From: Clostridium sp.
GTDB taxonomy: Bacteria; Bacillota; Clostridia; Lachnospirales; Lachnospiraceae
Assembly: GCA_031275405.1 (NCBI GenBank)
Contig: JAISOV010000006.1
Span: 84,379 to 148,378 of the forward strand
DNA length: 64,000 nt
Direction of reading: 5' to 3'
Below the pieces are notes generated by a model, which made no database searches, was not told where the DNA came from, and saw nothing but the letters and a program-made list of their open reading frames with translations. A program made the translations under genes and the position numbers. Positions 6,195-19,999 of the stretch are shown piece after piece (the stretch's first letter is position 1; every line of letters begins with the position of its first letter).

Positions 6195-6244
6195 AAAACA
6201 TACCTTTGTAAATTGGCGGTTCCGAACGACAAGGAGTGGTGCGT

Positions 6245-7186
6245 ATGAGGTTTCCTGCTGAATGGGAGCGTCACAGCGGTACCCTGATGATGTTCCCTGT
6301 CTTCTGGCAGAACGGCAGTCTGGCCGTTGCCCGCGAGCATTACTTGCGGGCTGCGGAGGCGATAGCGACGTTCGAGCCGGTGACGATGATTGCGAACAGT
6401 TCAGAGACTGTACTGGCGCGGCAAAGCGGCGTAGACGTACTGGAACTGCCGCACGATGACGCGTGGGCGCGTGACATTTGCCCGACGTTCGTCTTGGACG
6501 GCGGCGCGGTGACGGCGGTCAATTGGAAGTTCAACGCGTGGGGCGGCAAATATCCCAAGTGGGACTTGGATGATGACATACCGCGCCGATTTTGCGAAAG
6601 GGGAAAAATACCGCTTGTCAACGCGCCGCTTGTACTGGAGGGCGGCGGCATACATACGAACGGCGCGGGAACGCTGCTGACTACGGCGGAATGTCTGCTG
6701 CATCCGAACCGTAATCCGGATCTTTCGCAACGCGAGATCGAAACACAGCTGAAAGCGTTTACGGGCGCCGACAGAGTCGTATGGCTGCCATACGGCTTGC
6801 ACGACGATACCGAAACGGATGGCCATGTGGACAATGTATGCTGCTTTGCCGCCGAAGATACCGTGCTGTTACACCGCGAGGACGGTGAACGCGGCGACGC
6901 GAATCTGCGCGTCTTAAAGGATGCGGGACTTCGGGTCGTTGAGCTGCCTAAGCCGCAGGACGTCAATCTGCCGGCGGCTAGTTACGTTAATTTCTATCTG
7001 TGCAACGGCGCGGTGATAGCGCCCAAATTCGACGTCCCGTCCGACGCCCGCGCGGCGGCGATCCTGCGCGAGATGTTCCCGGCCCGTGAGGTCGTGCAGA
7101 TATACGGCCTGGAAATCCTGCGCGGCGGCGGCAATATCCACTGTATCACACAACAGATACCGGAGGCTTACCTATGCGAAACGTAA
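6245..7186 (+). CDS. aguA: Agmatine deiminase-like protein
   Basis: A 313-residue member of the agmatine deiminase/peptidyl-arginine deiminase family, which turns agmatine into N-carbamoylputrescine and ammonia. Visible family motifs are FPAEWERHSGT at the N-terminus, DDAWARDICPTFV, TDGHVDN (catalytic His and Asp) and the C-terminal GGGNIHCITQQIP with the nucleophilic cysteine. At 313 residues it is shorter than the usual 340-370, so substrate preference could differ. I choose ATG 6245 because AAGGAG lies 9 bases upstream; GTG 6236 is also in frame. The stop overlaps the aguB-like start by 13 bases, which implies translational coupling. It heads the operon that leads into the nitrogenase-like genes. 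Confidence 0.9.
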   Translation: MRFPAEWERHSGTLMMFPVFWQNGSLAVAREHYLRAAEAIATFEPVTMIANSSETVLARQSGVDVLELPHDDAWARDICPTFVLDGGAVTAVNWKFNAWGGKYPKWDLDDDIPRRFCERGKIPLVNAPLVLEGGGIHTNGAGTLLTTAECLLHPNRNPDLSQREIETQLKAFTGADRVVWLPYGLHDDTETDGHVDNVCCFAAEDTVLLHREDGERGDANLRVLKDAGLRVVELPKPQDVNLPAASYVNFYLCNGAVIAPKFDVPSDARAAAILREMFPAREVVQIYGLEILRGGGNIHCITQQIPEAYLCET

Positions 7187-8070
7187 CGGTTGCCGCAACG
7201 CAGTTCGCGAGCGGCGGAAATGCGAAATCAAATTCATCAAACTTATCCAATTTAGACACTGCGGAAGCGCTCGTGCGCGCCGCCGCCGGAGCCGGCGCGG
7301 ACATCATCCTGCTTCAGGAGCTGTTTGAAACGGACTATTTCTGCCAGAAACCCAAAGAGGAATATTTCGCGCTGGCCGTGGAGCTGGAACACAGCCCGTC
7401 GGTGCGCCGTTTTGCGGCCGTGGCGCGGGAACTGGGCGTGGTGCTGCCGATCAGTTTCTTTGAACGCAAAAACAACGCTTACTACAACTCGCTTGCCGTG
7501 ATCGACGCGGACGGAACGATACTCGGCGTTTACCGTAAATCCCATATTCCCGATGGCGCGGGGTATCAGGAGAAATTTTACTTCAACCCCGGTGATACGG
7601 GCTTTGTAACCTGGGATACCGCGTATGGACGCATCGGCTGCGGTATCTGCTGGGATCAGTGGTTTCCCGAATGCGCCCGTATCCTTGCGCTGAAAGGCGC
7701 GGAGCTGCTGTTCTATCCGACCGCGATCGGAAGCGAGCCTCTGAATCCGGCTCTGAATTCTCATCTGCACTGGCGCGCGTGTATTCAGGGCCACGCCGCC
7801 GCCAACCTGATCCCCGTCATCGCCTCCAATCGCATAGGCACGGAACGCGAGGACGACGACAGCCGGATCGTGTTCTACGGCGGCTCTTTGATTGCCGACG
7901 CACAGGGCCAGCTGGTCGCCGAGGCGGATAGCACGGCGCAAGGCTTTCTGACGGCGGCCTTTGATCTGGAGGAACTGCGTCAGGCGCGCCGCTCATGGGG
8001 CGTATTTCGGGACAGGCGCCCCGGCTTGTACAAACCGCTGCTCACTTTGGATGGTGAAACCTATGTATGA
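7174..8070 (+). CDS. aguB: N-carbamoylputrescine amidase-like nitrilase
   Basis: A 298-residue carbon-nitrogen hydrolase. The Glu-Lys-Cys triad is visible in LLQELFETDYF, YRKSHIPDG and GICWDQWFPE. Family members of this exact type (GYQEKFYFNPGD, HWRACIQGHAAANLIPV) hydrolyse N-carbamoylputrescine to putrescine, CO2 and ammonia, the step after agmatine deiminase. The length is normal. The gene overlaps the aguA-like gene in front and the amidohydrolase gene behind, so the three form one tightly coupled unit. Together the first two would release two ammonia molecules per agmatine. The true substrate could be another amidino compound, given the context. Confidence 0.9.
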   Translation: MRNVTVAATQFASGGNAKSNSSNLSNLDTAEALVRAAAGAGADIILLQELFETDYFCQKPKEEYFALAVELEHSPSVRRFAAVARELGVVLPISFFERKNNAYYNSLAVIDADGTILGVYRKSHIPDGAGYQEKFYFNPGDTGFVTWDTAYGRIGCGICWDQWFPECARILALKGAELLFYPTAIGSEPLNPALNSHLHWRACIQGHAAANLIPVIASNRIGTEREDDDSRIVFYGGSLIADAQGQLVAEADSTAQGFLTAAFDLEELRQARRSWGVFRDRRPGLYKPLLTLDGETYV

Positions 8071-9385
8071 TCTCGCAATCATCAACGGCACAGTGATAGA
8101 TCCGCGCCGCGATGGTACGTTTGCCGCGAACGTTTACTGCAAAGACGGGATCATCGCGGATGTGTCGGCTAATACGCAGGACGCGGCCCGCGTGATCGAC
8201 GCGGGCGGTATGTATGTATCGCCGGGCTTCCTTGACATACACGGCCACATTGAGGGACACGCGGCCTCCGGCAGGATGCTGCGGCGGCAAGGCGTGACGA
8301 CGGTGGTCAACGGCAACTGCGGTATGGGGCAGCCGGATCTGCCCGCCTTTCTTGCGCGGCTGCGCCGTAACGGCTTCGTCATGAACCAGTCGCAGCTGTC
8401 CGGCGCAACGACCTTACGTGAACGCGCAGGACAGGCTGACCCGTACTTGCCGCTGTCGAGGTCACAACTGTCAGCTGTGGTAAGACTGCTGGAAGCCGAT
8501 TTTGACGCGGGGGCGAGCGGACTGTCGTTTGGCCTTGAGTATGTTCCAGGTACGTCGCTGGAAGAAATTATGGAGCTGTCACGCGTTGCCGCACAACGGG
8601 GGAAGCCCGTCGCGGCGCATATACGTTCCGATTGCGCCGCAGGGCTGGACGCGTTGGACGAGATGTTCCATGTGTCGCGTGAAACCGGCGCGAGGGTGCA
8701 GATTTCACATGTCGTGTACCAGTTCGGCTACGGCTATATGCGCGAGGCGTTGGATAAGATCGCTGCGGCCGTGCGGGCGGGCCTGGATATTTCCTGCGAC
8801 AGCGGGATGTATACAAGCTTTGCCACGCGGATAGGTTCTGCCGTGTTCGATGACGGCTGCCTGGAAAAATGGGGCTGCGGCTATGATGCGATCTACACGC
8901 CCGGAGGCAGGTATGCGCGGCGGCGGCTGACCGGACAGATGTTTGAAGAGCTTCGCCGCGATTTTCCAGACACGAGCGCCATTGCGCTCATCGGAAACGA
9001 AGCGGAAATCCCGCTTGCCTTCGAGCTTCCGTATATGATGTGTTCGTCAGACGCCGGCGTCGCGGAAATGACAGGCGGCCATGCGCAAGACGCCCACCCG
9101 CAGGATGCCGGAACCTTTCCTCGTTTCCTGCGCAAACTCGTGCGTGAAAGCGCCCGGCTTTCCTTGCCCGACGCAATCAGGCGGATCACGCTCCTGCCCG
9201 CGCTGCGGATGGGTTTCGTGCGCAAAGGCAGAATGGAGCCGGGCTGCGACGCAGACATCACCGTATTCGATTTAGACGCAATTGCCGACAACGCGTGTTT
9301 CCCGCACGAAGGAGACCCGTGCGCGGTGCCGTCAGGCATTCAGTCAGTTATCATCCATGGGAAAATCGCGGAGGGAAAAGGCTGA
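8063..9385 (+). CDS. D-aminoacylase-like amidohydrolase
   Basis: A 440-residue metal-dependent amidohydrolase. Metal-site motifs are GFLDIHGHIEGH near residue 55, VNGNCGMG, ISHVVYQFGYG and the late Asp in CSSDAGV. The C-terminal composite sheet ends with GCDADITVFD. The order and the GNCG motif fit the N-acyl-D-amino-acid deacylase group, which removes acyl groups from D-amino acids, but the real substrate is not evident. I chose ATG 8063, which overlaps the aguB-like stop by 8 bases; the frame is open further upstream but inside that gene. It ends in a hairpin that also begins the leader of the next gene. Confidence 0.85.
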   Translation: MYDLAIINGTVIDPRRDGTFAANVYCKDGIIADVSANTQDAARVIDAGGMYVSPGFLDIHGHIEGHAASGRMLRRQGVTTVVNGNCGMGQPDLPAFLARLRRNGFVMNQSQLSGATTLRERAGQADPYLPLSRSQLSAVVRLLEADFDAGASGLSFGLEYVPGTSLEEIMELSRVAAQRGKPVAAHIRSDCAAGLDALDEMFHVSRETGARVQISHVVYQFGYGYMREALDKIAAAVRAGLDISCDSGMYTSFATRIGSAVFDDGCLEKWGCGYDAIYTPGGRYARRRLTGQMFEELRRDFPDTSAIALIGNEAEIPLAFELPYMMCSSDAGVAEMTGGHAQDAHPQDAGTFPRFLRKLVRESARLSLPDAIRRITLLPALRMGFVRKGRMEPGCDADITVFDLDAIADNACFPHEGDPCAVPSGIQSVIIHGKIAEGKG

Positions 9386-9443
9386 AAGCTTCTTTCAGCC
9401 TCCCAGAGTCGTCGCCCGTTAAGACGGGCAGATTGGAGCAATC
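9380..9443 (+). promoter_or_regulatory. Two-hairpin leader of the PotD-like gene
   Basis: Hairpin A pairs GGCTGAAAG (9380-9388) with CTTTCAGCC (9392-9400). Hairpin B pairs GCCCGT (9414-9419) with ACGGGC (9424-9429). AGATTGGAGC follows and holds the ribosome site for the ATG at 9444. The leader at 14516-14576, before the other binding-protein gene of the locus, has the same arrangement and wording. Confidence 0.6.
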
Positions 9444-10487
9444 ATGAAACGTTTCCTCACTGCCATCCTGCTTTGCGCGCTTGCGCTGGGACTGCTTGTC
9501 TCTTGCGGCGGAGCAGGGTCTGACCGGTCAGTCAACCTGTTCATCTGGTCGGAGTACATGCCGCAGGAAGTCCTGGACGACTTTGAGGCGGAAACCGGTA
9601 TCAAAGTCAACATCACGACCTTCGGCTCCATTGCCGATATGTACGCAAAGGTGAAAAGCTCGCCCGCCGGTACCTACGATCTGATTGACGCCGCAGGGTT
9701 TTATGTAAAACGGCTGATTGATGAGGGCAAACTGGACAAAATCGACTTTTCCAATGTGCCGAATGCTCAGAACATTGCGGAGGGCTACAAAAACCAGAAC
9801 TTCGACCCGGACAACGAGTACTCCGTCCCGTATCTGGGCGGCGTCGCGACGATCTGTGTGAATACGGCGCGCGTGACGGAACCGATTACCTCCTATGCCG
9901 ACCTGTTCAGGCCGGAGTATGAAAAATCAATCGTCATCATAGACGATTTCCGCGTGATCATCGGAGCCATCAATCTCATGCTAGGCTTCGGCTACGATGA
10001 GGCCGACCCGCAGAAGCTGGAGCAGACCAAGGCAAAGCTGCTGGAGCTGAAACCGAACATCAAGGTCATTGACGGCGACAGCCCGAAAACGTATATGATC
10101 AACGGAGAAACGACTCTGGGTATCATCTATAGCGCTGAAATAGCCATCGCAATGGAGGAAAACCCGGACGTGGAGGTCGTTTATCCTGCCGAAGGGCAGT
10201 ACCTGTTCTTCGATAGCCTGTGCATTGCCAAAGACAGCAAAAACAAAGCCGAGGCGGAGAAGTTTCTGGATTATATACTCCGCCCGGAAGTCGGCAAGAA
10301 AATTGTGGACATCTTCCCCTATACAAGCCCCAATGACGCCGCCGCCGCGCTGTTGGGCGAGGACTATCTCGGAAACTCCGCCAAAAACATTCCCGCGACC
10401 GCCGTCGCGAAGGGATACAACCCGGTTGACCTCGATACGGACACTCTGCAGATCTACAACGACATCTGGACGGAGTTCACGAAATGA
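9444..10487 (+). CDS. PotD-like polyamine-binding lipoprotein
   Basis: A 347-residue extracytoplasmic solute-binding lipoprotein. The signal peptide ends in LLVSCGGAG, a lipobox with the lipidated Cys at about residue 21. The mature domain starts with VNLFIWSEYMPQEVLDDFEAETG, typical of spermidine/putrescine-binding proteins, and continues with YDLIDAAGFYVKRL and VPYLGGVATICVN. No PotA, PotB or PotC accompanies it, so it must use another permease or feed the ABC importer 3 kb downstream. Placed after aguA- and aguB-like genes, it may capture agmatine, putrescine or a related amine. A two-hairpin leader precedes it and a very strong terminator follows. Confidence 0.9.
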   Translation: MKRFLTAILLCALALGLLVSCGGAGSDRSVNLFIWSEYMPQEVLDDFEAETGIKVNITTFGSIADMYAKVKSSPAGTYDLIDAAGFYVKRLIDEGKLDKIDFSNVPNAQNIAEGYKNQNFDPDNEYSVPYLGGVATICVNTARVTEPITSYADLFRPEYEKSIVIIDDFRVIIGAINLMLGFGYDEADPQKLEQTKAKLLELKPNIKVIDGDSPKTYMINGETTLGIIYSAEIAIAMEENPDVEVVYPAEGQYLFFDSLCIAKDSKNKAEAEKFLDYILRPEVGKKIVDIFPYTSPNDAAAALLGEDYLGNSAKNIPATAVAKGYNPVDLDTDTLQIYNDIWTEFTK

Positions 10488-10547
10488 CCTTTCCGGCAGT
10501 TTTTTAACAAAGATTTATTTTCGTCGATTTGCACGAATCATATCTAA

Positions 10548-10599
10548 AAACAGAGCAATCCATAGTAAATACATAGAATTACTATGGATTGCTCTGTTT
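10548..10599. terminator. 21-bp stem-loop ending the aguA-like operon
   Basis: A 21-bp perfect stem, 10548-10568 with 10579-10599, around a 10-base loop. It starts after a run of A and ends in TTTG, so it could terminate in both directions. The core CAGAGCAA is shared with the leader hairpin at 6085-6126. TTGACA follows at 10604 and may begin the promoter of the next operon. Confidence 0.8.
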
Positions 10600-10689
10600 G
10601 CTCTTGACAGATACAAAAAATTGTATTATTTTATATTAATATGAAACATATATGTATAGTATATCTTAGATTGGCGAAGGAGGTATCAC

Positions 10690-12141
10690 ATGGCGCGTAC
10701 CTATTCGGGCATACGGGAAACACGCCCGCACACCTACAACGATTTGGGCGGCGGAAGTCAGCGGCTCGCGCTCGGCTTCCATCAGCAGTGCCTCAGGCAC
10801 GCGGACCGCACGTTCAGCCAAGGGCTGCAATGCCAGCAGATCAACAGCGTTTCGGCGGTGCTGTCTATGGAGGACGCCGCGTTCGTCATACATTCGCCGC
10901 AAGGGTGTTCCGGCTGCGTCGCGATGGGCGCGGACGGCTACCGCGTCGGACAGGCGCACAGAGGCGTCCGGCTGATTAAAAGCCCGCGTGTCATCGTGAC
11001 CAACCTCGACCAGAACGACGTCGTCTATGGCGGAGAGAAGAAGCTGCGTGAGGCGGTAAGGCTGGCGGCGGAGCGTTACAGCCCCAAGATGATTTTTATT
11101 TTCACATCCTGCGCCTCCGGCATCATCGGCGACGACGTAGACGCGATCGCAGCCGACCTGCAAGCGGCGCAAAAGGCTGCGTTCCCGGTTATCATACCCA
11201 TTCACTGCGACGGGTTTCGTTCCAAAGTCTGCGCGTCAGGCTTTGACGCGGCGTTTATCGCCATACAGAAGTTTCTGCTGCCGAAAGAGCCGCAGACAAA
11301 GGTTGACGGTCTTGTGAATCTGTTTGCGCCGACCTCCATTTCCTATAAGGATCAGCTGGAAATCGAGCGTATGCTTGGATTACTGGGCGCAACGGTCAAC
11401 TACATCCCGTTCTATTCCTCATACGATAAGATACGGCGTATCACGGCCGCTCAAGCGTCCACGTCCATCTGCAAGGTGTTCGCCGACGAGTTTATGAAAG
11501 AGCTTGACCAGACTTACGGGATCCCGTTCGCGCATACGGTCATGCCAATCGGCATACGCAACACGGACAAATGGCTTATCGGCATTGCCGAGCTGCTTGG
11601 CAAGACAGAGCGGGCGCGTGACTACATCGACCGTGAACACAAGCGCGTACAGCCGCGCCTGAACGAGATAAAAGAGCGCCTGCAAGGCAAGCGGGTATTT
11701 ATATGCGGCGGCACGGGACGCAGTTTTGCCGCGGCCGCGCTCATAGACGATTTCGGCATGAAGCTGGTCGGGCTGGAAACACCCACATACGACTTGGACG
11801 CGCAAATTGACGTGGAATATCTCAACGGCATTCACGGCGATTACGTCATTGACGTTGCCAATATGCAGCCGTTTGAGCAGGTGAACCTTGTCAGTCGTCT
11901 GAAACCGGACGTGTTTATCGGCGTACCGTCGTGGAGCGCAAGGTTAGGCGTACCGACTACGCACGTCCTTGACCCGAAACGCCCGACGATGGGCTATGAC
12001 GGTATCCTGTATCTCGGCGAGAAGATAGCCGACCAGGTCGAAAACCCCGGTTTCAACCGCAAGCTCGCGCCATATGCCCGTCTGCCCTATAAGCAGTCGT
12101 GGTATGACAGCGACGCGTTCAAATTCATTCAGGAGGGCTGA
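10690..12141 (+). CDS. NifD-like nitrogenase component 1 alpha homologue (pair 1)
   Basis: A 483-residue member of the nitrogenase component 1 family. Cys48, Cys73 (HSPQGC) and Cys141 (FTSCASGIIGDD) match the three P-cluster cysteines of NifD. Cys261, 18 residues before the P of YGIP, matches cofactor ligand Cys275. His425 (THVLDPKRPTMGYDG), exactly 10 residues before GYDG, matches ligand His442. The segment HCDGFRSKVCASGF aligns with NifD 183-195 and puts Cys181 at Gln191 and Phe185 at His195. The full ligand set argues for a real iron-sulfur cofactor, and the altered pocket argues against N2 as substrate. GGAGG precedes the ATG. The NifK-like partner starts 5 bases after the stop. Alignments are by eye against remembered NifD motifs. 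Confidence 0.93.
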   Translation: MARTYSGIRETRPHTYNDLGGGSQRLALGFHQQCLRHADRTFSQGLQCQQINSVSAVLSMEDAAFVIHSPQGCSGCVAMGADGYRVGQAHRGVRLIKSPRVIVTNLDQNDVVYGGEKKLREAVRLAAERYSPKMIFIFTSCASGIIGDDVDAIAADLQAAQKAAFPVIIPIHCDGFRSKVCASGFDAAFIAIQKFLLPKEPQTKVDGLVNLFAPTSISYKDQLEIERMLGLLGATVNYIPFYSSYDKIRRITAAQASTSICKVFADEFMKELDQTYGIPFAHTVMPIGIRNTDKWLIGIAELLGKTERARDYIDREHKRVQPRLNEIKERLQGKRVFICGGTGRSFAAAALIDDFGMKLVGLETPTYDLDAQIDVEYLNGIHGDYVIDVANMQPFEQVNLVSRLKPDVFIGVPSWSARLGVPTTHVLDPKRPTMGYDGILYLGEKIADQVENPGFNRKLAPYARLPYKQSWYDSDAFKFIQEG

Positions 12142-12146
12142 CTACC

Positions 12147-13421
12147 ATGTCTGATATTACCGAAAATCCACGCGGCACTTGTGTTGTGGGTGGCGTGAAC
12201 AACGTACTCAGCGCGGTGGCGCGGGTATGTCCGATTTACCACAGCGGCCCCGGCTGCTGTATGCAGACGTCGGCGGGCGAGGCGGGCCAGGCGGGTCTGC
12301 GCGGGCCGTACTACCTGTCAGGCGTGTCGTCGCCGTGTTCCAATATGCTGGAACGCGAAGTGGTATTCGGCGGCGAACAGAAACTGCGCGATGAAATCGA
12401 CGGCGCCTTGGAAATCATAGACGCGGACGCGTACTTTGTGCTTACCGGCTGTACGGCGGGTATCATCGGTGACGACGTGGCGGCAGTCACCGCCGACTAC
12501 CGTGAGCGCGGGCTGCCCGTCTATCCCGTCACCACGCCGGGTTTCGCCGGCGACAGCTTGCTTGGCTACGAAACCGCATTTGACGTGTTCCTGGACTATA
12601 TTATGGAAAGCGGGCGCGAACGGCAGGACGACCTAGTGAACCTGCTGGGCGTGGTGCCGTATCACGACCCGCATTGGCAGGGTACGCTGGAAGAGCTGTC
12701 ACGGCTCCTGCGCAGGCTGGGACTGCGGGTGAATACGTTCTTCACCGATGATCAGGACATGGAGATCATCAAGGGCGCGGGCGCGGCGGCGCTGAATGTG
12801 ATCGTCAGTCCGCACTTACTGCGTAAGGCCGCGGAAAAGTTTGAAAGCAAATTCGGCGTGCCGTCCGTACGCTTCCACGGCGTGCCGATAGGCGCGACGC
12901 AGACGGGCGAATTCGTGAAAGCCGTCGCCGCGCTGCTGGACATTGACGCAGCCGCCGTACTGGAATCAGAAAGCGCCTACGTGTACAACTGCTTGGAAAG
13001 CATCATCGGCGCGTTGTCGTGGAAACGCTTCGCCGTTGCCGCCGACGCGTCTACGGCGATCGGCATGACGCGTTTCCTGGCGGAAGATTTCGGTTTCACG
13101 CCCGTGGCGGTAGTCATAACCGAACCTATCTGGCGCGCCGCAGACAGACGGAGCATATCCGGCGCGCTGACCAGCCTGGATCACACCAAGCAGCCCAAAG
13201 TGTCCTTTCTCTCCGACCATTACGACATACGCCGGGAGCTGAAAGCGCACGACTATACCCTGCTGATCGGCAGTTCGTTAGAGGACGAAGTAGCGCGCGA
13301 GTTAGGCGTACAGCTGCTCGTTACGGCGTTCCCGATGTCCGACCGCTTAGTGATCAACCGTACTTATGCCGGCTTCAGAGGCTGCCTGACATTGGTGGAG
13401 GATTTGTTTCACAACCTATGA
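12147..13421 (+). CDS. NifK-like nitrogenase component 1 beta homologue (pair 1)
   Basis: A 424-residue component 1 protein. Cys12, Cys37 (HSGPGC) and Cys102 (LTGCTAGIIGDD) have the spacing of the NifK P-cluster cysteines. The landmark VVFGGEQKL lies between them, as in NifK. It lacks the N-terminal extension of true NifK and is about 100 residues shorter, as in DPOR-type and other nitrogenase-like subunits. It should form a heterotetramer with the preceding NifD-like protein and share a P-cluster-type centre at the interface. A 77-codon frame overlaps its stop by ATGA. Confidence 0.93.
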   Translation: MSDITENPRGTCVVGGVNNVLSAVARVCPIYHSGPGCCMQTSAGEAGQAGLRGPYYLSGVSSPCSNMLEREVVFGGEQKLRDEIDGALEIIDADAYFVLTGCTAGIIGDDVAAVTADYRERGLPVYPVTTPGFAGDSLLGYETAFDVFLDYIMESGRERQDDLVNLLGVVPYHDPHWQGTLEELSRLLRRLGLRVNTFFTDDQDMEIIKGAGAAALNVIVSPHLLRKAAEKFESKFGVPSVRFHGVPIGATQTGEFVKAVAALLDIDAAAVLESESAYVYNCLESIIGALSWKRFAVAADASTAIGMTRFLAEDFGFTPVAVVITEPIWRAADRRSISGALTSLDHTKQPKVSFLSDHYDIRRELKAHDYTLLIGSSLEDEVARELGVQLLVTAFPMSDRLVINRTYAGFRGCLTLVEDLFHNL

Positions 13422-13651
13422 AAACCTATCATGACATGACAACAGAATTCCTTGCTTGGCGCCGGGGCTTCCTGACAGCAAAGCGGCGCGTATATCCCCG
13501 TTGCAGCGGCGCCGGGCCGCCAGGCCGTATGTACGCGTGTTCCGGCACTGTCGGCGCCGCCGGGCCGAATGCGGACGACGTACCAGAGGAAAAGACGCAA
13601 CGGAGCGGCTCTGCCCACATAGAGCAGACAAATACGTTCTCGCGGGGCTAA
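13418..13651 (+). CDS. Possible small ORF coupled to the NifK-like gene
   Basis: The ATG at 13418 overlaps the NifK-like stop (ATGA), and the frame runs 77 codons. The peptide starts MKTYHDMTTEFLAWRRGF and is rich in Gly, Ala and Arg, with two cysteines. Several other frames are open here on both strands because of high GC, and I recognise no family, so this may be noncoding. The coupling geometry is the only positive sign. If real, it would be co-expressed with pair 1. Confidence 0.3.
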   Translation: MKTYHDMTTEFLAWRRGFLTAKRRVYPRCSGAGPPGRMYACSGTVGAAGPNADDVPEEKTQRSGSAHIEQTNTFSRG

Positions 13652-13665
13652 ATTTTTTTACATTC

Positions 13666-13704
13666 AAAACATACTATACCGATATATTTATTGATATTTG
13701 GAGG
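13666..13704 (+). promoter_or_regulatory. AT-rich start region of the ABC importer unit
   Basis: AAAACATAC (13666-13674) repeats the word found at 6195-6203. The surrounding ATACTATACC and GATATATTTATTGATAT are unusually AT-rich for this locus, as expected for a promoter. A GGAGG site at 13700-13704 serves the ATG at 13713. No clean pair of promoter boxes can be fixed. Confidence 0.4.
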
Positions 13705-13712
13705 TACAGACT

Positions 13713-14465
13713 ATGCTCAGGATTACAGGCGTTACAAAAGCGTTCGGCAGGACACAAGTCCTAAAGGGCATCGACCTGGCGGTGGAAAAAGGGGAAGTGA
13801 CCGCCATCATCGGGCCGTCAGGTTCCGGAAAGACCACGCTGCTGCGTTGCCTGAACTTCCTGGAACGCGCCGACGCGGGTACGTTGACGATCGGGGGCGA
13901 GACCGCTGACTTCCGTGCCGCCTCCAAGAAAGACATCTACCGTCTGCGCCGCAAGACGGCTATGGTGTTCCAAAATTTCTGCCTGTTCCATAACAAGACG
14001 GCGTTGGAGAATATCACGGAAAGCCTGATCGTAGTACGCAAGCAGACCAAAGAGGAGGCGGAGGAAATAGCCGTGCGGCTGCTGGAACGGGTCGGACTGA
14101 AAGAGAAAAGGAACGCATACCCGTCGTTCCTCTCGGGCGGACAGCAGCAGCGCGTAGGTATTGCGCGGGCGCTGGCGCAGTCGCCGGACGTGATCCTGTT
14201 TGACGAGCCTACGTCCGCGCTGGATCCGGAACTGATCGGGGAAGCGCTGTGCGTCATCCGCGACGTCGCTAAGTCGGGCATTACCATGATCATCGTGACG
14301 CACGAAATGCAGTTTGCGTATGAAATCGCCTCACGCGTCGTGTTCATGGACGACGGTGTGATCGTGGAGCAAGGCTCGCCGTCGGACGTATTCCTCTACA
14401 CCAAAGAGGAACGCACGAAGCAGTTTTTATCACGATTCAACTTAGGCTCGGATTACTCTATTTAA
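13713..14465 (+). CDS. Polar amino acid-type ABC importer ATPase
   Basis: A 250-residue ABC ATPase of the GlnQ/HisP group. Walker [11 protein letters not shown]-loop VFQNFCLF, signature LSGGQQQR, Walker [15 protein letters not shown] and switch VTHEM are all intact. It energises uptake through the two permeases encoded at 15431 and 16147 with the binding lipoprotein at 14577. The upstream TTG at 13698 overlaps the ribosome site, so ATG 13713 is preferred. Its position between the two nitrogenase-like pairs suggests that the imported compound is a substrate or precursor for those enzymes. Confidence 0.93.
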
Positions 14466-14515
14466 TTTAGCGACCTTGCGTTTCGCAACACAGAATACTT
14501 TTTGGAGGGAAAACA

Positions 14516-14576
14516 GGTTGAAACTTTCAACCTCCCTGATTGGTATGCCCGCCAAAGCGGGCAGATAGGAGCGACC
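14516..14576 (+). promoter_or_regulatory. Two-hairpin leader of the amino acid-type binding protein gene
   Basis: Hairpin A pairs GGTTGA (14516-14521) with TCAACC (14527-14532). Hairpin B pairs TGCCCGC (14546-14552) with GCGGGCA (14557-14563) around CAAA. GATAGGAGC gives the ribosome site for the ATG at 14577. It matches the leader at 9380-9443 in order, spacing and wording. Confidence 0.6.
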
Positions 14577-15431
14577 ATGAAACTCAGGCTTACCGTACTT
14601 AACGTTCTTTCGCTTACCGCTCTGGCCCTTACGATGACTGCCTGCGGCAACGCCAATCAGGCGGCGGACGGCGACGCCACGCGCCAGGTCAAAGTGGTCG
14701 GCTATACGGCAAACGTTCCGTTCGTCTATCTTGACGAGGACGGTGAATTAACCGGCTACGAGCCGGCGGTGCTTCGCGCAATCGACGAGCTTTTGACGCA
14801 ATACGAGTTCAGCTATGAGGGCATGGACTTCGCCGCTATGCCCGTCGCGCTGGAAGCGGGCAACGCTCAAATAGCCGTATGTATGCTTGTCAAAAGCGAG
14901 GAACGCCTGGAACGCTTCATTTTCCCGGAGGAACCGTCTACGCTGTCGCCAATGAACTTCCTCATCAAAGAAGGCCGCGACGACATACAGGTATTCGATG
15001 ATATTGGCGGTAAAATCGTGGCGACTGGCAACTCCGGCTACGAGTACGTCCATATGGTGAAATGGAACGAAAAGCACCCGGGCAATGAAATTCAATTCTG
15101 GCTTACCAACGAAACCAACTCCGCCGACGTGTATCCGAAAATTCTGGCCGGCGAGATTGACGCGCAGCTGCTGTATCCGCAAGGTTTCCAGTACATCGAA
15201 GAAGATCAGGGCTGGAGCGGCTTAGCGTTGTCGCCCGTCGTGTTCGTCGAAGATACCTACTTTATGCTGGGCAAGGACGAAACCGAGTTGCGTGACGCAA
15301 TCGACGGCGCATTGAAAACGCTCAAAGCAGACGGTACGCTCGGTAAAATTTCGGAGGAATGGCTTGGCGAGGACGTGTTTGAAGTTTACAAAGACATATT
15401 CGCCGCCCAAGGCGACTGGCAGGAGAAGTGA
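14577..15431 (+). CDS. Amino acid-type ABC solute-binding lipoprotein
   Basis: A 284-residue family 3 solute-binding protein. A signal peptide with lipobox TMTACGN gives a lipidated Cys at about residue 23. Then come VVGYTANVPFVYLDEDGELTGYEPAVLRAI and, late, LKTLKADGTLGKISEEWLG, both family hallmarks. Members bind polar amino acids, opines and related amines, and the ligand here is unknown. I start at ATG 14577 because GGAG lies 6 bases upstream. The stop overlaps the first permease start (TGATG). With the ATPase and two permeases it forms a complete importer. Confidence 0.92.
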   Translation: MKLRLTVLNVLSLTALALTMTACGNANQAADGDATRQVKVVGYTANVPFVYLDEDGELTGYEPAVLRAIDELLTQYEFSYEGMDFAAMPVALEAGNAQIAVCMLVKSEERLERFIFPEEPSTLSPMNFLIKEGRDDIQVFDDIGGKIVATGNSGYEYVHMVKWNEKHPGNEIQFWLTNETNSADVYPKILAGEIDAQLLYPQGFQYIEEDQGWSGLALSPVVFVEDTYFMLGKDETELRDAIDGALKTLKADGTLGKISEEWLGEDVFEVYKDIFAAQGDWQEK

Positions 15432-16150
15432 TGGCTACTGATTTATTCAAACCCGAACTGATACCGGAACTAGTGGTCAAGATAGGGAAGTCCTTCCCGG
15501 TAACGTTCCTGCTTGCGGTCTGTTCGCTTGCGCTGGGGCTGACGTTTGCGTTCGGGGTCGCGGCGGCAGGGCTTTGCCGGTGCAAGCCGCTGAACGTGCT
15601 GTCACGCGGGTATGTCCACTTTATACGCGGGATCCCGTCGCTGATTCTGATTTATCTGCTGTACTTGGGCTTTCCGCAGCTGATGAAGAACGCGTTCGGG
15701 ATTGACATGAGCAGAGTGCCGAAAAGCGTGTACCTGGTATGGATCTTCGCGATTGCCGTATCGGCTAATTTTGCGGAGCTTATGCGCAGTGCCTATGCCG
15801 CCGTGGCAAAGGGACAGCGGGAGGCGGCTCTGGCTTGTGGGATGACGGGGGCGCAGGCATTTCGGCGCGTCGTGTTCCCGCAGGCCTTCGGCGTGGCGCT
15901 GCCGAGCCTGGGCAACCTGGTCATTATGCTGTTCAAGCTGACTTCGCTGGGCTTCATTGTCGGCGTGGTCGATCTGATGGGTAAGGCAAAGATACTTTCG
16001 GCGCGTACCTATGGCTCGCGGCGGTTAGAAGTATACCTTGCGCTTGCCATGATCTACTGGGTGCTGTGTTTCGGGCTGGAGCGGCTTAACGCCGCGTTGG
16101 TGAAACGCTATACACGCGGCAGACGTGAGATGGGAGGCGCGGGGATATGA
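15431..16150 (+). CDS. Amino acid-type ABC permease 1
   Basis: A 239-residue HisM/GlnP-type permease. It has about five membrane segments and the cytoplasmic coupling loop LRSAYAAVAKGQREAALACGMTGAQAF (EAA motif), followed by FPQAFGVALPSLGN. A 1-base overlap with the binding protein gene and a 4-base overlap with permease 2 show one operon. It should pair with permease 2 as a heterodimer. Confidence 0.92.
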   Translation: MATDLFKPELIPELVVKIGKSFPVTFLLAVCSLALGLTFAFGVAAAGLCRCKPLNVLSRGYVHFIRGIPSLILIYLLYLGFPQLMKNAFGIDMSRVPKSVYLVWIFAIAVSANFAELMRSAYAAVAKGQREAALACGMTGAQAFRRVVFPQAFGVALPSLGNLVIMLFKLTSLGFIVGVVDLMGKAKILSARTYGSRRLEVYLALAMIYWVLCFGLERLNAALVKRYTRGRREMGGAGI

Positions 16151-16848
16151 CATTCAGCTTTGATTTCACGCGGGAGGCGTTCCCGCAGATCCTGTCGTAT
16201 CTGCCGACGACGCTTGCCGTGGCGGCAGTCGCGGAAATGATCGCGCTGCTGCTCGGGCTTGCCCTTGCCGCCCTGAAACGCCGGCGCGTACCGGTGCTAA
16301 GTTGGGCATTGGCGGTCTTCCAGTCCTATTGCCGCGCCGTACCTACGCTTGTACAGCTGTTTGTGGCGATGTTCCTGTTCCCGAAGCTGGTATCGCTCAT
16401 CAACCCAAACGACCCGTTCGGCACATCTGTGCCGTCGATTGTCTATGCGGTGATTACGCTGGGGCTGAATCAAGGTTCCTTCTGCGCGGAGGTGTTCGGA
16501 TCCGCGCTGGACGCTGTGGACGCGGGCCAGACGGAAGCGGCGCTGTCCGTCGGCATGAGCAGGCTGCAAAGTCTGACGCGTATCGTCGTGCCGCAGGCGG
16601 CCGCCGTGGCGATCCCCAACCTTACGTCGCTGTTCCTGGGGTTGATACAGGAGACATCGCTTGTGGCTATGGTAGGGGTACGCGAGATTACGTCTGTCGG
16701 GATCAACCTTGCCGACCTCGGCTATTACTTCCTGGAAACGTATGTCATGCTGACCGTCCTCTACGAAGTCTGTAGCTTCGTTTTTGGGAAACTGCTGCGC
16801 GTTCTGGAGCGTAGCGTAAGCAAATTCAAATATCAGGCGGTGAGGTGA
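16147..16848 (+). CDS. Amino acid-type ABC permease 2
   Basis: A 233-residue permease of the same family as the preceding gene. The EAA loop reads GQTEAALSVGMSRLQSLTRIVVPQAA, and SYCRAVPTLVQLFV is the usual helix after the first segment. The ATGA overlap at 16147 couples it to permease 1. Only 4 bases separate its stop from the NifX-like gene, which ties the transporter to the nitrogenase-like genes in one transcript. Confidence 0.92.
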   Translation: MTFSFDFTREAFPQILSYLPTTLAVAAVAEMIALLLGLALAALKRRRVPVLSWALAVFQSYCRAVPTLVQLFVAMFLFPKLVSLINPNDPFGTSVPSIVYAVITLGLNQGSFCAEVFGSALDAVDAGQTEAALSVGMSRLQSLTRIVVPQAAAVAIPNLTSLFLGLIQETSLVAMVGVREITSVGINLADLGYYFLETYVMLTVLYEVCSFVFGKLLRVLERSVSKFKYQAVR

Positions 16849-16852
16849 ACAC

Positions 16853-17242
16853 ATGGACTCTATCAAAATAGCCGTCGCGACAAGCGACGGCAAATCCATA
16901 GACCTGCACTTCGGCCACGCCGAATGGCTGCGCGTGTACACGGTGGACGCGGCGGGCGGCGTGGAACGCGAGGAAGAGCGGCCCGGTCTTGCTTCGCGCG
17001 TCTGCAAGGAAGACGACAGCGGCGGTTTTGGTGAGGACGCTATGCGCGGGATCCTTGCGTCTCTTTCCGACTGCAAGTATGTCCTCGTGAAACGCATCGG
17101 TCCTCATATGGTGCGCGAGCTTGCCGCGCACGGAATCACATCGTTTGAGCTGTTCGGAGAGCTTGACGCAGCCATTGTGAAAATCGCCGCCTATGAGCGG
17201 AAACAACGTGAAAGGAAACAGCGCAATGAAACTCAATCTTAA
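16853..17242 (+). CDS. NifX/NafY-like cofactor-binding domain protein
   Basis: A 129-residue single-domain protein of the dinitrogenase iron-molybdenum cofactor family (NifX, NafY and the NifB C-terminal domain). The family opening VATSDGKSIDLHFGHAEWLRVY is clear, as is ILASLSDCKYVLVKRIGPHMVRELAAHGI. Family members bind iron-sulfur cofactor precursors and shuttle them between scaffold and enzyme. It overlaps the second NifD-like gene by 17 bases, so a role in cofactor handling for these pairs is the obvious inference. Confidence 0.85.
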   Translation: MDSIKIAVATSDGKSIDLHFGHAEWLRVYTVDAAGGVEREEERPGLASRVCKEDDSGGFGEDAMRGILASLSDCKYVLVKRIGPHMVRELAAHGITSFELFGELDAAIVKIAAYERKQRERKQRNETQS

Positions 17243-18689
17243 CACGTCGGCAGTGCCGACGAGGGAGAACCGGCTCGGCTCCATTACCGGCTACGCCGGA
17301 GGCCTGCATGAGCTGCTGGACTCGTCCGGCTGCGGTACGCTGAAGAACAGAGAACGCTGCTTTTCGCAGTCCAGCACATGCCTGTCAGGCTGTGCGGTCG
17401 GATTACTGTCGTCAATACGGGACGTGGCGGTTGTGTGGCACGCGCCAGCGGGCTGCCATTCGTTCACGAATGTGCTGGGCGACCAGCTGGCGCGCAACAT
17501 CAACGCCTCGTTCGACACGAAAGTGGTCGGCACGGACTTATCGGAAAGCGATACGGTATTCGGCGCGCTCGACAGTGCCCGTTCTCTTGCATACAAGGCG
17601 TATGGACAGTACCATCCGAAAGCGATCTTCATCGCGTCGTCGTGCGTGACGGGCGTAATCGGGGAGGACATTGACAGCATCGTGGAAGAGTTGTCCGAGG
17701 AACTCGGCGTACCCGTAGCGTCGGTGCATTGTGAAGGGTTCAAGTCGCGTATTTGGGCGTCCGGCTTTGATCTTGCCGACCACGCCGTACTGCGGCATCT
17801 TGTGAAACCGCCCAAGGAAAAACGCCGTGTCGTCAACTTCAAGAACTTCTTTGAAAGCGAACGCTCCCAGATCACGGAGCTGTTTGCAAGGCTGGACGTG
17901 ACGCCGCAATTCCTGTACTCGAACAGCACGGTCGAGGAGTTGTCGCATTTATCGGAATCCCTTGCGACGGTGTGTATCTGCGGTACGCTCGGAACGTATC
18001 TGGGCAACGGTTTGGAGGAACTCTACGGTGTTCCGTATGTACGCACGGTCAACCCGATGGGGATGACCGGCTTTGAAACGTGGTTTCGAGAAATCGGACG
18101 GCTGGCTGACCGTGAGGCACAGGCGGAGCAAGTCATACGGGAGCAGCGCGAGAAATATCTGCCCGACATCCTCAAAATCAAGGAGGAAATCAAAGGACAT
18201 ACAGCCGTCATAGGCATGGGGCCGGGCTACACATACGAGGTTATGCGCGTGTGCCAGGAGCTGGGCATTGAAGTCGTCCACGCCGCCGCGTGGCACCTTG
18301 ACCACAAGTATGACGACGGCAGGATACCGCCCGCGCTGGACTATCTGCGCCGCACGTCGCCGGTCGATGTCGCGCTGTCCGTCGCCGATCAGCAGAATTT
18401 CGAGATTGTAAATATCCTGAATCGGTACAGACCCGATCTGTATTTCTCGCGACACCCCGGCTCTACGGTGTGGGCAATCAAGCAGGGCGTGACTGCGGTA
18501 TTCGTCGCCGATGAATATATGATCTTCGGCTACCGAGGCACGCTGAACTTCGCCAAGACGGTGCGTGACAATCTTGTCAACCGCAGTTTTGAAAAGAACC
18601 TCGCTGCGCGTGTGCAGCTGCCGTACACCGACTGGTGGTATCGCCAAGACTCAGATTCTCTGTTTGTCAAGTCAGGAGGTGAGCAGTAA
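17226..18689 (+). CDS. NifD/NifE-like nitrogenase component 1 homologue (pair 2)
   Basis: A 487-residue component 1 protein. Cys52, Cys77 (HAPAGC) and Cys140 (ASSCVTGVIGED) fit the P-cluster positions, with 25 residues between the first two as in pair 1. Cys252, 18 residues before the P of YGVP, fits cofactor ligand Cys275. At the His442 position, 10 residues before GYRG, there is Val425 and no nearby His. The scaffold NifE also keeps the Cys and lacks this His, so a NifEN-like role is plausible. The CEGFKSRIWASGF segment puts Trp and Phe at NifD 191 and 195. ATG 17226 is chosen for AAAGGA upstream and its coupling to the NifX-like gene. Confidence 0.92.
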   Translation: MKLNLNTSAVPTRENRLGSITGYAGGLHELLDSSGCGTLKNRERCFSQSSTCLSGCAVGLLSSIRDVAVVWHAPAGCHSFTNVLGDQLARNINASFDTKVVGTDLSESDTVFGALDSARSLAYKAYGQYHPKAIFIASSCVTGVIGEDIDSIVEELSEELGVPVASVHCEGFKSRIWASGFDLADHAVLRHLVKPPKEKRRVVNFKNFFESERSQITELFARLDVTPQFLYSNSTVEELSHLSESLATVCICGTLGTYLGNGLEELYGVPYVRTVNPMGMTGFETWFREIGRLADREAQAEQVIREQREKYLPDILKIKEEIKGHTAVIGMGPGYTYEVMRVCQELGIEVVHAAAWHLDHKYDDGRIPPALDYLRRTSPVDVALSVADQQNFEIVNILNRYRPDLYFSRHPGSTVWAIKQGVTAVFVADEYMIFGYRGTLNFAKTVRDNLVNRSFEKNLAARVQLPYTDWWYRQDSDSLFVKSGGEQ

Positions 18690-19999
18690 TGGCGCGAGTA
18701 CTGGATCAGCCGCGCTACAAGTGCGCGTTAGGGGCAATGAACACGGTGCAGTCGATACCGAACGCAATCCCGATTCTGCATTCCGGCCCGGGCTGCGCCA
18801 GCAAGCTCAGCGGCTTTGCCGGCAGCAGCGGCAAATTCTCGCCTAATTTGTTCCCCTGCACGTCCGTGAGCGAGAAAGAGGTGGTGTTCGGCGGCAGCGA
18901 CAAGCTGCGCGATACGATTGCAAACGCGCTGAAGGTCATCGACGCGCAGTTGTTCGTCGTGCTGTCCGGCTGTACGTCAGAGCTGATCGGCGACGACATC
19001 GGCGAGGTCGCCGGCGAGTTCCGCCGCGACGGCAAGCCGGTTGTCTACGCCAATACGCCCGGATTTAAGGGCAGCAACTACGAGGGACACGGCTGGGTTC
19101 TCCAAGCCGTCTTTGACCAGTATCTGCCTGCGGCAGATACCGTTACCGCGAAGCAGACCGGCTTCGTAAATATCTTCGCCGGGCCGCCGCAGGCAGATCC
19201 GTACTGGCATGGAAATCTGCGCGAGCTGGAGAAGCTGGTCGCGTCACTAGGTCTTACGCCGAATACCATCTTCGGCTATGGACGCGGTGTGCCGTCACTG
19301 GATCGGCTGCCATACGCGGAGTTTAACTTGCTCGTGTCGCCGTGGGTCGGGCTTGACGCCCTGGAATTTCTCAGCAAGAAGTACGGCACGCCGCTGCTGC
19401 ACTATCCCGTGCTGCCGGTCGGCGCGTTTGAAACGTCCGCGTTTCTGCGGGCAGTCGGTGAGTTTACCGGCGTCAGCAAGGCAACGGTGCAGTCGGTCAT
19501 CGACGAGAACGAGAAAGAGTACTACTACTTCATAGAGCGTTATGCGGATATGTTCCTGGAAATGCGCATTATCTCGAAACGGTTCTCGATCATCGGTGAT
19601 GCGCAGTACGCGCTTGCGTTCACGAAATTCCTTGTCAACGACTTGGGAATGTTTCCGACTACATCATACATAACCGACCGTACGCCGGAACAGTACCGTC
19701 CGCTGATCCTTGACGAATTCAGGCGTCTCAATTACGGTATCGAGGCGGACGCGGAATTCCTCACCGACGGCTACGAAATACACCGGCGCGTCAGAGAGAA
19801 AGACTTCAACGGGTTTCCTCTCATCATCGGCGGCAGCTGGGACAAAGCGCTTGCCAACGATTTGAAAGGCAACTACGTCAATCTGCTGAACCCGATCCTA
19901 GAGAAGCTGATCATTAACAGCCACGTTGCCGGTTACTCCGGCGGCCTGAAGATGCTGGAAGAAATCTACACAGCGGGGCTGTCTCGCTTAATCTTGTAA
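18689..19999 (+). CDS. NifK/NifN-like nitrogenase component 1 homologue (pair 2)
   Basis: A 436-residue component 1 protein. Cys12, Cys36 (HSGPGC) and Cys95 (LSGCTSELIGDD) match P-cluster positions, and VVFGGSDKL is the family landmark. It resembles the pair 1 NifK-like protein in length and motif order, so the two pairs probably arose by duplication. The ATG shares its A with the preceding TAA, and AGGAGG lies 9 bases upstream. It is the last gene of the operon, and a hairpin-bearing tandem repeat array starts 61 bases after its stop. Confidence 0.93.
   Translation: MARVLDQPRYKCALGAMNTVQSIPNAIPILHSGPGCASKLSGFAGSSGKFSPNLFPCTSVSEKEVVFGGSDKLRDTIANALKVIDAQLFVVLSGCTSELIGDDIGEVAGEFRRDGKPVVYANTPGFKGSNYEGHGWVLQAVFDQYLPAADTVTAKQTGFVNIFAGPPQADPYWHGNLRELEKLVASLGLTPNTIFGYGRGVPSLDRLPYAEFNLLVSPWVGLDALEFLSKKYGTPLLHYPVLPVGAFETSAFLRAVGEFTGVSKATVQSVIDENEKEYYYFIERYADMFLEMRIISKRFSIIGDAQYALAFTKFLVNDLGMFPTTSYITDRTPEQYRPLILDEFRRLNYGIEADAEFLTDGYEIHRRVREKDFNGFPLIIGGSWDKALANDLKGNYVNLLNPILEKLIINSHVAGYSGGLKMLEEIYTAGLSRLIL

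What the first reader, a model, noticed from the sequence alone, without database searches (positions are those of the whole stretch)
6245..19999. Nitrogenase-like locus with two component 1 pairs, NifX, own importers and amidine-degrading enzymes
Seen: two NifD/NifK-like gene pairs, a NifX-like gene overlapping the second pair, a complete amino acid-type ABC importer between them, an orphan PotD-like lipoprotein, and aguA-, aguB- and D-aminoacylase-like genes in one co-directional block. Known: nitrogenase-like enzymes outside N2 fixation reduce chlorophyll precursors (DPOR, COR), nickel-sirohydrochlorin (Cfb) or methylthio-alkanes (Mar), and none of these that I know carries this set of neighbours. 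Inference: the locus imports a small nitrogen- or sulfur-containing compound and breaks it down by a novel reductase plus hydrolases. It may be an undescribed nitrogen-scavenging system.
Basis: partly seen in the sequence, partly recalled or inferred. Interest (0 to 1): 0.93.

Follow-up and report, generated by a model that had tools for sequence, protein, structure and literature searches.

The report
Twin nitrogenase-like sulfur-salvage enzymes with importer
This stretch of a bacterial genome encodes two different nitrogenase-related enzyme pairs around a cystine-type importer, a set repeated in bacteria of several phyla; it is predicted to bring in a sulfur-containing compound and would likely cut its carbon-sulfur bonds to feed cysteine synthesis, while the amidine-degrading genes next door are probably unrelated neighbours.

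Summary
The genes are as described: two component-1 pairs (D1K1, D2K2), a NifX-like gene, a complete amino-acid-type ABC importer, and upstream aguA, aguB, an amidohydrolase and a PotD-like lipoprotein. The interpretation changes. All four subunits match methylthio-alkane reductase (Mar) better than any other solved structure. D2 is sister to Mar and keeps its cofactor residues (53 of 53 homologues). D1 is a separate clade without Mar's Arg-His, with an invariant His (86 of 86) aligned with nitrogenase's FeMoco-ligating His. Of 12 D1-bearing genomes among 397 of the family, 11 also have D2. In 80 named D1 loci, D2 or K2 lies within 10 kb in 47, cysteine synthase in 36, NifB in 35, NifH in 35, the importer in 27; aguA, the amidohydrolase and the PotD-like gene in none. 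The genome's NifH, NifB and a CysK lie at two other Mar-like loci; no siroheme sulfite reductase was detected (84% complete). Best reading: a two-enzyme reductive sulfur-salvage system importing a sulfur-containing amino-acid-like compound and releasing sulfide or thiol. Substrate, order and product are inferred. The nitrogen/amidine reading is not supported. D1's relation to the 'Nfa' group could not be tested.

The parts
10690..12141 (+). D1: NifD/MarD-like subunit of pair 1 (own clade; nitrogenase-position His425, Cys261, no Mar Arg-His)
   Evidence: PF00148 257 bits; best solved match Mar 9D9U/9FMG 246.5 bits; tree; His425 and Cys261 in 86 of 86
12147..13421 (+). K1: NifK/MarK-like subunit of pair 1
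   Evidence: PF00148 246 bits; MarK 244.6 bits; three P-cluster-position Cys in 79 of 79
13713..14465 (+). ABC importer ATPase, cystine/TcyN-like (ORF opens at 13698)
   Evidence: related ATPases at D1/D2 loci
14577..15431 (+). ABC importer substrate-binding lipoprotein, family 3 (cystine-like; ORF opens at 14502)
   Evidence: PF00497 77 bits; cystine SBP model 69 bits, below cut-off
15428..16150 (+). ABC importer permease 1
   Evidence: PF00528
16147..16848 (+). ABC importer permease 2
   Evidence: PF00528
16853..17242 (+). NifX-like cofactor-carrier domain protein
   Evidence: PF02579 54.5 bits; NifB-tail and NifX models below cut-off
17226..18689 (+). D2: NifD/MarD-like subunit of pair 2, with Mar-type Trp188, Cys263, Arg420-His421 (ORF opens at 17193; residue numbers count from there)
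   Evidence: MarD 9FMG 303 bits; residues 53 of 53; sister of the clade with MarD
18689..19999 (+). K2: NifK/MarK-like subunit of pair 2
   Evidence: MarK 366.9 bits, next best NifK 76.7; three P-cluster-position Cys in 55 of 55
6236..10487 (+). Neighbouring polyamine-type genes aguA (6236-7186), aguB (7174-8070), amidohydrolase (about 8063-9385), PotD-like lipoprotein (9444-10487): judged NOT part of the system
   Evidence: not conserved at homologous loci

Best explanation
The locus encodes two nitrogenase-like reductase pairs and a cystine-type importer, and is predicted to be a reductive sulfur-salvage system that would take up a sulfur-containing amino-acid-like compound and likely cleave its C-S bonds to release sulfide or a thiol for cysteine and methionine synthesis. 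Inferred steps: the importer brings in the compound; a NifH-type reductase encoded at the C4 (or C47) locus of the same genome drives ATP-dependent electron transfer to the P-clusters of D1K1 and D2K2; the NifB-like protein of the C47 locus makes the [Fe8S9C] cluster, which the NifX-like protein may carry; D2K2, with a Mar-type site, cleaves a thioether or related C-S bond; D1K1, with a nitrogenase-type His ligand, carries out a second reduction of the product or of a related substrate; CysK (C47 locus) fixes the released sulfide. Shown by sequence: gene content, homology, conserved cluster-ligand positions, co-occurrence of D1 with D2, recurrent importer and cysteine-synthesis neighbours, no detectable siroheme sulfite reductase in this incomplete genome. 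Not shown: substrate, product, order, expression.
For: Homology: all four subunits match Mar best among solved structures (D1 246 bits, K1 245, D2 303, K2 367; best non-Mar match 118 or less); a D1 model of moderate quality (mean pLDDT 70.7) matches Mar first (E 9.6e-31, next NifEN 6.9e-21). Cluster ligands: P-cluster-position cysteines in all D1, K1 and K2 rows and in D2 53, 53 and 52 of 53 (one gap); Cys270 equivalent in 86 of 86 D1 and 53 of 53 D2. Neighbourhood of 80 named D1 loci: D2 or K2 47, CysK 36, NifB 35, NifH 35, MetB/MetY 14, PatB 13, cystine-type importer 27. One run of genes in Clostridium aminobutyricum DSM 2634: SBP-permease-permease-ATPase-D1-K1-D2-K2-NifB-NifX-NifH (L071). 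Importer kinship: in 10 of 15 other genomes, chosen with knowledge of the maps, the best match to the window ATPase lies inside (9) or 1 kb outside (1) the D1/D2 locus, among 82 matches. D1 with D2: 11 of 12 D1 genomes against 12 of 385 others (Fisher p 2e-14). Sulfite reductase (PF01077): in 1 of 14 D1/D2-bearing family genomes against 95 of 186 others (p 0.0014; not corrected for kinship). The genome's two other Mar-like loci sit with MetY-like or CysK genes and sulfonate-type importers.
Against: No substrate, product or expression data. In the window itself neither CysK, NifB nor NifH is adjacent. Ten of 13 genomes reached through named loci do have PF01077, so its absence is no rule. 53 of 80 named loci do not show the cystine-type importer by my thresholds; 13 have a sulfonate-type importer; short contigs hide some. 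In five of the 15 genomes the best ATPase match lies elsewhere (4) or is missing (1). G234 has D1 without D2. D1 has a nitrogenase-type His not seen in Mar, so its chemistry may differ. No sulfur riboswitch in 14 related loci or the window.
Confidence: 0.55

Rival explanations
1. Both pairs are simply extra methylthio-alkane reductases: they cut methyl thioethers and give methanethiol for methionine.
For: D2 and K2 are closest to MarD/MarK among solved proteins and D2 keeps Trp188, Cys263, His368 and Arg420-His421 in 53 of 53; D2 is sister to the clade that holds MarD.
Against: R. rubrum MarD joins the C4-like clade (96*, long branches flagged), not D2 or D1. At several loci of that clade MetY-like genes adjoin, whereas D1 loci carry CysK more often (36 of 80) than MetB/MetY (14 of 80), and CysK takes sulfide. 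D1 lacks Arg-His (9 of 9 rows).
Confidence: 0.2
2. D1K1 is a NifEN-like assembly scaffold that finishes or hands over the cluster for D2K2 rather than an enzyme.
For: NifE is the best NCBIfam model for D1 (168.8 bits, cut-off 505); 11 of 12 D1 genomes also have D2; NifX-like genes adjoin.
Against: 12 of 23 D2 genomes have no D1, so D2 does not seem to need it; D1K1 keeps all six P-cluster-position Cys and both inner ligands; the Mar cluster is [Fe8S9C] itself (PMC12552129), so a NifEN-like finishing step is not demanded (inference).
Confidence: 0.12
3. D1K1 is a Group IV-A (Nfa-type) enzyme that fixes N2, as claimed for Endomicrobium proavitum.
For: D1 His425 aligns with the presumed FeMoco His of a NifD in profile alignment and is invariant (86 of 86), as is the Cys275 equivalent; E. 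proavitum precedent (PMC9147875 section 3.5 first part; PMC11257099 passages).
Against: Of nitrogenase residues listed as conserved in PMC9641968 (passages) D1 keeps Cys275 and His442 but has Cys, Ala and Phe at Gln191, Ser192 and His195 and Val and Glu at Arg277 and Tyr281; the eight PF00148 proteins found in this incomplete genome are four Mar-like pairs, none Nif or NifEN; neighbours are sulfur genes.
Confidence: 0.07
4. It is an isethionate-reductase-like (Isr) sulfonate system that releases sulfite.
For: Sulfonate-type importers adjoin 13 of 80 D1 loci; one D1 locus has a sulfolactate-dehydrogenase-like gene (243.7 bits, cut-off 500) and an aminotransferase (L029).
Against: IsrD has one of three P-cluster Cys and no Cys275 (PMC11423573, section read), D1 and D2 keep all; IsrB resembles NifB only in the radical SAM motif (passage), the B gene of this genome scores 300.7 bits to the NifB model (cut-off 343.7); 13 of 14 family genomes with D1/D2 have no detectable siroheme sulfite reductase.
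Confidence: 0.08
5. One reading: a nitrogen-scavenging system in which the reductases and the amidine hydrolases act on one imported compound.
For: Co-directional block in the window.
Against: aguA and the PotD-like gene in 0 of 120 mapped loci, the amidohydrolase one hit of 38 bits, aguB two hits; agmatine to putrescine is a complete known use of aguA/aguB (established knowledge); a 202-base gap precedes D1.
Confidence: 0.04

Closest known systems
Methylthio-alkane reductase MarBHDK (Rhodospirillum rubrum; PDB 9FMG, 9D9U)
   Same: Best solved match of all four subunits; P-cluster-position cysteines; Cys270 equivalent; D2 also keeps Trp195, His375 and Arg428-His429 equivalents; NifB- and NifH-type partners; sulfur context.
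   Different: D2 and D1 lie outside the clade that holds MarD; D1 lacks Arg-His and has a nitrogenase-position His; two pairs side by side; cystine-type importer and CysK recur at the loci.
Isethionate reductase IsrBHDK (Rhodobacter capsulatus)
   Same: Group IV nitrogenase-like enzyme that assimilates sulfur, proposed to cleave a C-S bond, working with an importer (SsuCAB).
   Different: IsrD lacks two of three P-cluster Cys and Cys275; IsrB is not NifB-like beyond the radical SAM motif; D1 and D2 keep all these positions.
Nfa, Group IV-A (Endomicrobium proavitum, Paenibacillus riograndensis)
   Same: Group IV; the E. proavitum protein is said to possess the N2-reduction ligands, as D1 has Cys275 and His442 equivalents.
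   Different: Not compared: no NfaD sequence was reachable. D1 lacks the Gln191 and His195 equivalents.
NifEN
   Same: NifE model scores D1 best; a second component-1 pair beside another.
   Different: D1K1 keeps all six P-cluster-position Cys and both inner ligands; D2 occurs without D1.
TcyJKLMN-type sulfur amino-acid importer
   Same: TcyN and cystine SBP models score best for ATPase and lipoprotein.
   Different: Both far below the curated cut-offs; bound compound unknown.

Membership tests
Methylthio-alkane reductase (Mar) | D subunit inside the MarD clade | tested here: not met
   MarD joins the C4-like clade (96*); D2 sister, D1 separate (quick tree, MarD on a long branch)
Methylthio-alkane reductase (Mar) | Arg428-His429 and Cys270 of MarD | tested here: inconclusive
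   D2: all kept, 53 of 53; D1: Cys kept 86 of 86, Arg-His missing in 9 of 9 rows
Methylthio-alkane reductase (Mar) | Reduces methylthio-alkanes to methanethiol | not testable with these tools
   needs enzyme assay
Nitrogenase (Nif/Vnf/Anf) | Gln191, His195, Arg277, Tyr281 equivalents with Cys275 and His442 | tested here: not met
   D1 has only the Cys275 and His442 equivalents of these; D2 only Cys275
Nitrogenase (Nif/Vnf/Anf) | NCBIfam NifD model above cut-off | tested here: not met
   125 (D1) and 131 (D2) bits, cut-off 653.6
Isethionate reductase (Isr) | One of three P-cluster Cys in D and no Cys275 | tested here: not met
   all these Cys present in D1 and D2; feature from PMC11423573
Nfa (Group IV-A) | D subunit inside the NfaD clade | not tested
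NifEN | NifE model above cut-off | tested here: not met
   168.8 bits, cut-off 505.1
DPOR, COR, CfbD | BchB/BchN/BchZ/CfbD model above cut-off | tested here: not met
   best BchB score 94 bits, cut-off 490; CfbD 48 or less, cut-off 268

The most novel reading that the evidence does not exclude
D1K1 and D2K2 form a two-step nitrogenase-like desulfurisation pathway: D2K2 cuts a thioether to a thiol and D1K1, an unstudied enzyme with a nitrogenase-type cluster ligand, removes the sulfur from the thiol as H2S for CysK, giving anaerobes sulfide from organic sulfur without sulfite reductase.
Probability: 0.2. Interest if true: 0.88.

Novelty: new variant of a known kind. Interest (0 to 1): 0.68.

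Why it matters
The D1 clade is nearest to Mar among solved proteins but has a conserved His where nitrogenase has its cluster His. The Mar paper (PMC12552129, section 12) could not infer this ligand for the common ancestor because it lies in different loops, so D1 may be a natural intermediate to study. The two-pair system occurs in Lachnospiraceae (many record titles name rumen or gut), spirochaetes, Propionispira and MAGs of other phyla, with cultured strains among them; if the reading holds it would define a sulfur source for anaerobes and a possible source of sulfide or small hydrocarbons.

Tried and rejected
Rejected: amidine/nitrogen scavenging (no conservation); classical nitrogenase, DPOR, COR, Cfb (model scores far under cut-offs); Isr (cysteine pattern). 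Led nowhere: sulfur riboswitches near homologous loci (none, one tRNA); promoter and terminator scan (7 promoter-like sites, 7.6 expected; 22 terminator-like, 15.3 expected, none decisive); regular-expression residue counts were too strict and were replaced by alignment columns. Mended on re-check: the sulfite-reductase table had counted the window's own genome among the others; one search gives the corrected values.
Full report
What is there. Two tight groups can be seen: aguA-aguB-amidohydrolase-PotD (6236-10487) and, from 13.7 kb, ATPase-SBP-permease-permease-NifX-D2-K2, with D1-K1 between them. The best models for the importer are those of cystine transport, under the curated cut-offs.

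What the pairs are. By phmmer all four subunits match the solved Mar complex best; 9FMG is named as the Mar complex in PMC12552129 (abstract, passages). In a tree of 67 D-type proteins (quick method, SH-aLRT only; two rows of L022 and two distant rows, L041 and L043, were left out) D2 (23 rows, 100*) is sister to a clade (96*) that holds MarD and the window genome's own C4 pair; D1 (22 rows, 99*) is a separate clade whose place among the deeper branches is unsure. The program flags long branches, MarD among them; Isr and Nfa proteins were not in the tree. The genome has eight PF00148 proteins, that is four pairs, and two strong NifH: the C4 locus with a MetY-like gene, a sulfonate-type importer and NifH; the C47 locus with NifH, a NifX-NifB fusion, CysK and a sulfonate-type importer. 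NifH proteins at D1/D2 loci of relatives resemble the C4 NifH (about 80% identity) more than the C47 one (about 49%), so I infer that the window pairs use the C4 NifH and the C47 NifB.

Active sites. PMC12552129 (sections 4, 8 and 12 read) names Cys270, Arg428-His429, Trp195 and His375 of MarD. In alignment columns (86 D1, 53 D2, 79 K1, 55 K2 rows; dropped as short or weak: 1 D1, 3 D2, 9 K1, 4 K2; the duplicate loci L114 and L138 also left out) the D2 family has the equivalents Trp188, Cys263, His368, Arg420 and His421 in 53 of 53. The D1 family has Cys261 in 86 of 86, Cys in place of Trp195 in 84 of 86, and an invariant His425 (86 of 86); Arg-His is missing, with a loop four residues shorter, in the 9 of 9 rows. 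Profile alignment with the NifD of a relative (L040) puts His425 on the His of its QLHSYDY motif, which I take, from recall of the A. vinelandii sequence, to be the FeMoco ligand His442. P-cluster-position cysteines are kept in all four subunits (one gap in one D2 row). Of the residues that PMC9641968 (passages) lists as conserved in nitrogenases, Gln191, Ser192, His195, Arg277 and Tyr281 are not kept in D1 (numbering carried over through the L040 NifD). N2 fixation is therefore unlikely though not excluded.

Neighbourhood. Among 200 family genomes (own included) 64 had a PF00148 match at E 0.001, 58 over the cut-off. I fetched 40 stretches around such genes and mapped them by BLAST against a set of proteins of this genome. 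A scan of genome contigs with 16 D1 orthologues found 184 relatives, of which 80 loci were returned: Lachnospiraceae, Oscillospiraceae, Clostridium, Propionispira, Treponema and other spirochaetes, Synergistaceae, a Dehalococcoidia and a Coriobacteriia MAG among them. Within their flanks of up to 10 kb (45 of 80 loci are at least 15 kb long; counts for these in brackets): D2 or K2 47 (36), CysK 36 (27), NifB 35 (30), NifH 35 (29), cystine-type importer 27 (19), sulfonate-type importer 13, MetB/MetY 14, PatB 13. Nineteen loci have D1, D2 and the cystine-type importer together, among them Bacillota, Spirochaetota, a Dehalococcoidia and a Coriobacteriia record. Over all 120 mapped loci, hits of any rank: aguA 0, PotD-like 0, the window's amidohydrolase one of 38 bits (L052), aguB 128 bits (L047) and 59 bits (L083).

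Importer kinship. In 16 genomes searched with the window ATPase at E 1e-50 there were 85 places, 82 of them in the 15 other genomes. By coordinates the best place of a genome is inside a D1/D2 locus in nine (G160, G200, G201, G203, G204, G205, G209, G210, G212) and 1 kb outside it in a tenth (G206); in G182, G047, G112 and G171 it is elsewhere, and G009 has none. The named genomes were chosen after I had seen the maps, so 10 of 15 is not a frequency; it shows that where an importer sits at the locus it is that genome's closest to the window's. For the named genomes the match of contig numbers to accession numbers rests on equal coordinates.

Co-occurrence. In 397 family genomes searched with each protein at E 1e-110, D1 orthologues (65% identity or more) occur in 12 and D2 orthologues (58% or more) in 23; 11 of the 12 D1 genomes have D2, own genome included (10 of 11 without it); G234 has none. 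One 45% D1 relative (G161) and three 38-42% D2 relatives were not counted. Twelve D2 genomes have no D1. So D1 nearly always goes with D2, not the reverse, as expected if D1 acts on a product of D2 or serves the same pathway; this is an inference.

Sulfur context. PF01077 (siroheme sulfite/nitrite reductase) has no match in the window genome and in 12 of 13 other D1/D2-bearing genomes of the 200 (G161 counted among them), so 1 of 14 against 95 of 186 others has a match (p 0.0014, no correction for kinship). For the C4/C47-type genomes the difference is not significant (3 of 12, own included; p 0.14). Against this, 10 of 13 genomes reached through named loci have PF01077. The common product is therefore more likely sulfide or thiol than sulfite, but not strictly so.

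Host group.

Literature. Seven full-text searches were made. In their listings and in the parts I read I saw no description of a two-pair locus with this importer. PMC10418091 (passages) links group IV-A genes with sulfur gene clusters; PMC9147875 (passages, section 3.5 first part) reports several NflDK pairs of unknown role in heliobacteria, which may include relatives; PMC11423573 was seen as abstract, passages and two sections. North et al. 2020 was not read and is known to me only through citations and recall.

Verdict. Observation confirmed; nitrogen/amidine reading not supported; importer link supported; best reading a sulfur-salvage system of two nitrogenase-like reductases, one Mar-type and one of a clade that I could not assign to any characterised enzyme.

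Noticed in passing
G000 contig C47, L017:4072-12812: A third Mar-like pair with NifH, a NifX-NifB fusion, CysK and a sulfonate-type importer in the window's genome; in its clade D has the His but not the Arg of the Mar pair (6 of 6 rows).
   Followed up: partly
G000 contig C4, L015:10058-14714 and L016: Fourth pair with a MetY-like gene, sulfonate-type importer and NifH; its D groups with R. rubrum MarD, so probably a true Mar system.
   Followed up: partly
L044:8365-9768 and L045:8459-9964: Family relatives with nitrogenase-like pairs that lack the Cys62 and Cys275 equivalents, like the described IsrD pattern; L044 lies beside sulfonate-type importer genes.
   Followed up: partly
L047:8167-10389 and L058:6840-9344: Single open frames that match NifH and also hold a PF00148 match (740 and 840 aa frames): NifH and component-1 parts apparently fused.
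   Followed up: no
L080, L084, L087, L096, L097, L102 and L030:5681-6970: A conserved amidohydrolase (best model Xaa-Pro dipeptidase, 192 bits, cut-off 500) beside the cystine-type importer in 6 of 80 named loci and L030, other than the window's amidohydrolase; may act on the imported compound.
   Followed up: partly
L087:9496-9915; L024:6567-7466; L071:1976-2890; L080:16842-17747: An Rrf2-type regulator between the pairs (L087) and LysR-type regulators at the other three loci.
   Followed up: no
window:9444-10487: PotD-like lipoprotein without permease or ATPase genes of its own beside it, in a tight run with aguA and aguB: looks like a small polyamine or agmatine cluster.
   Followed up: no
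G076:C148:2683-3357: One K1 frame is marked with an inside TGA; may be a decaying copy or an assembly error.
   Followed up: no
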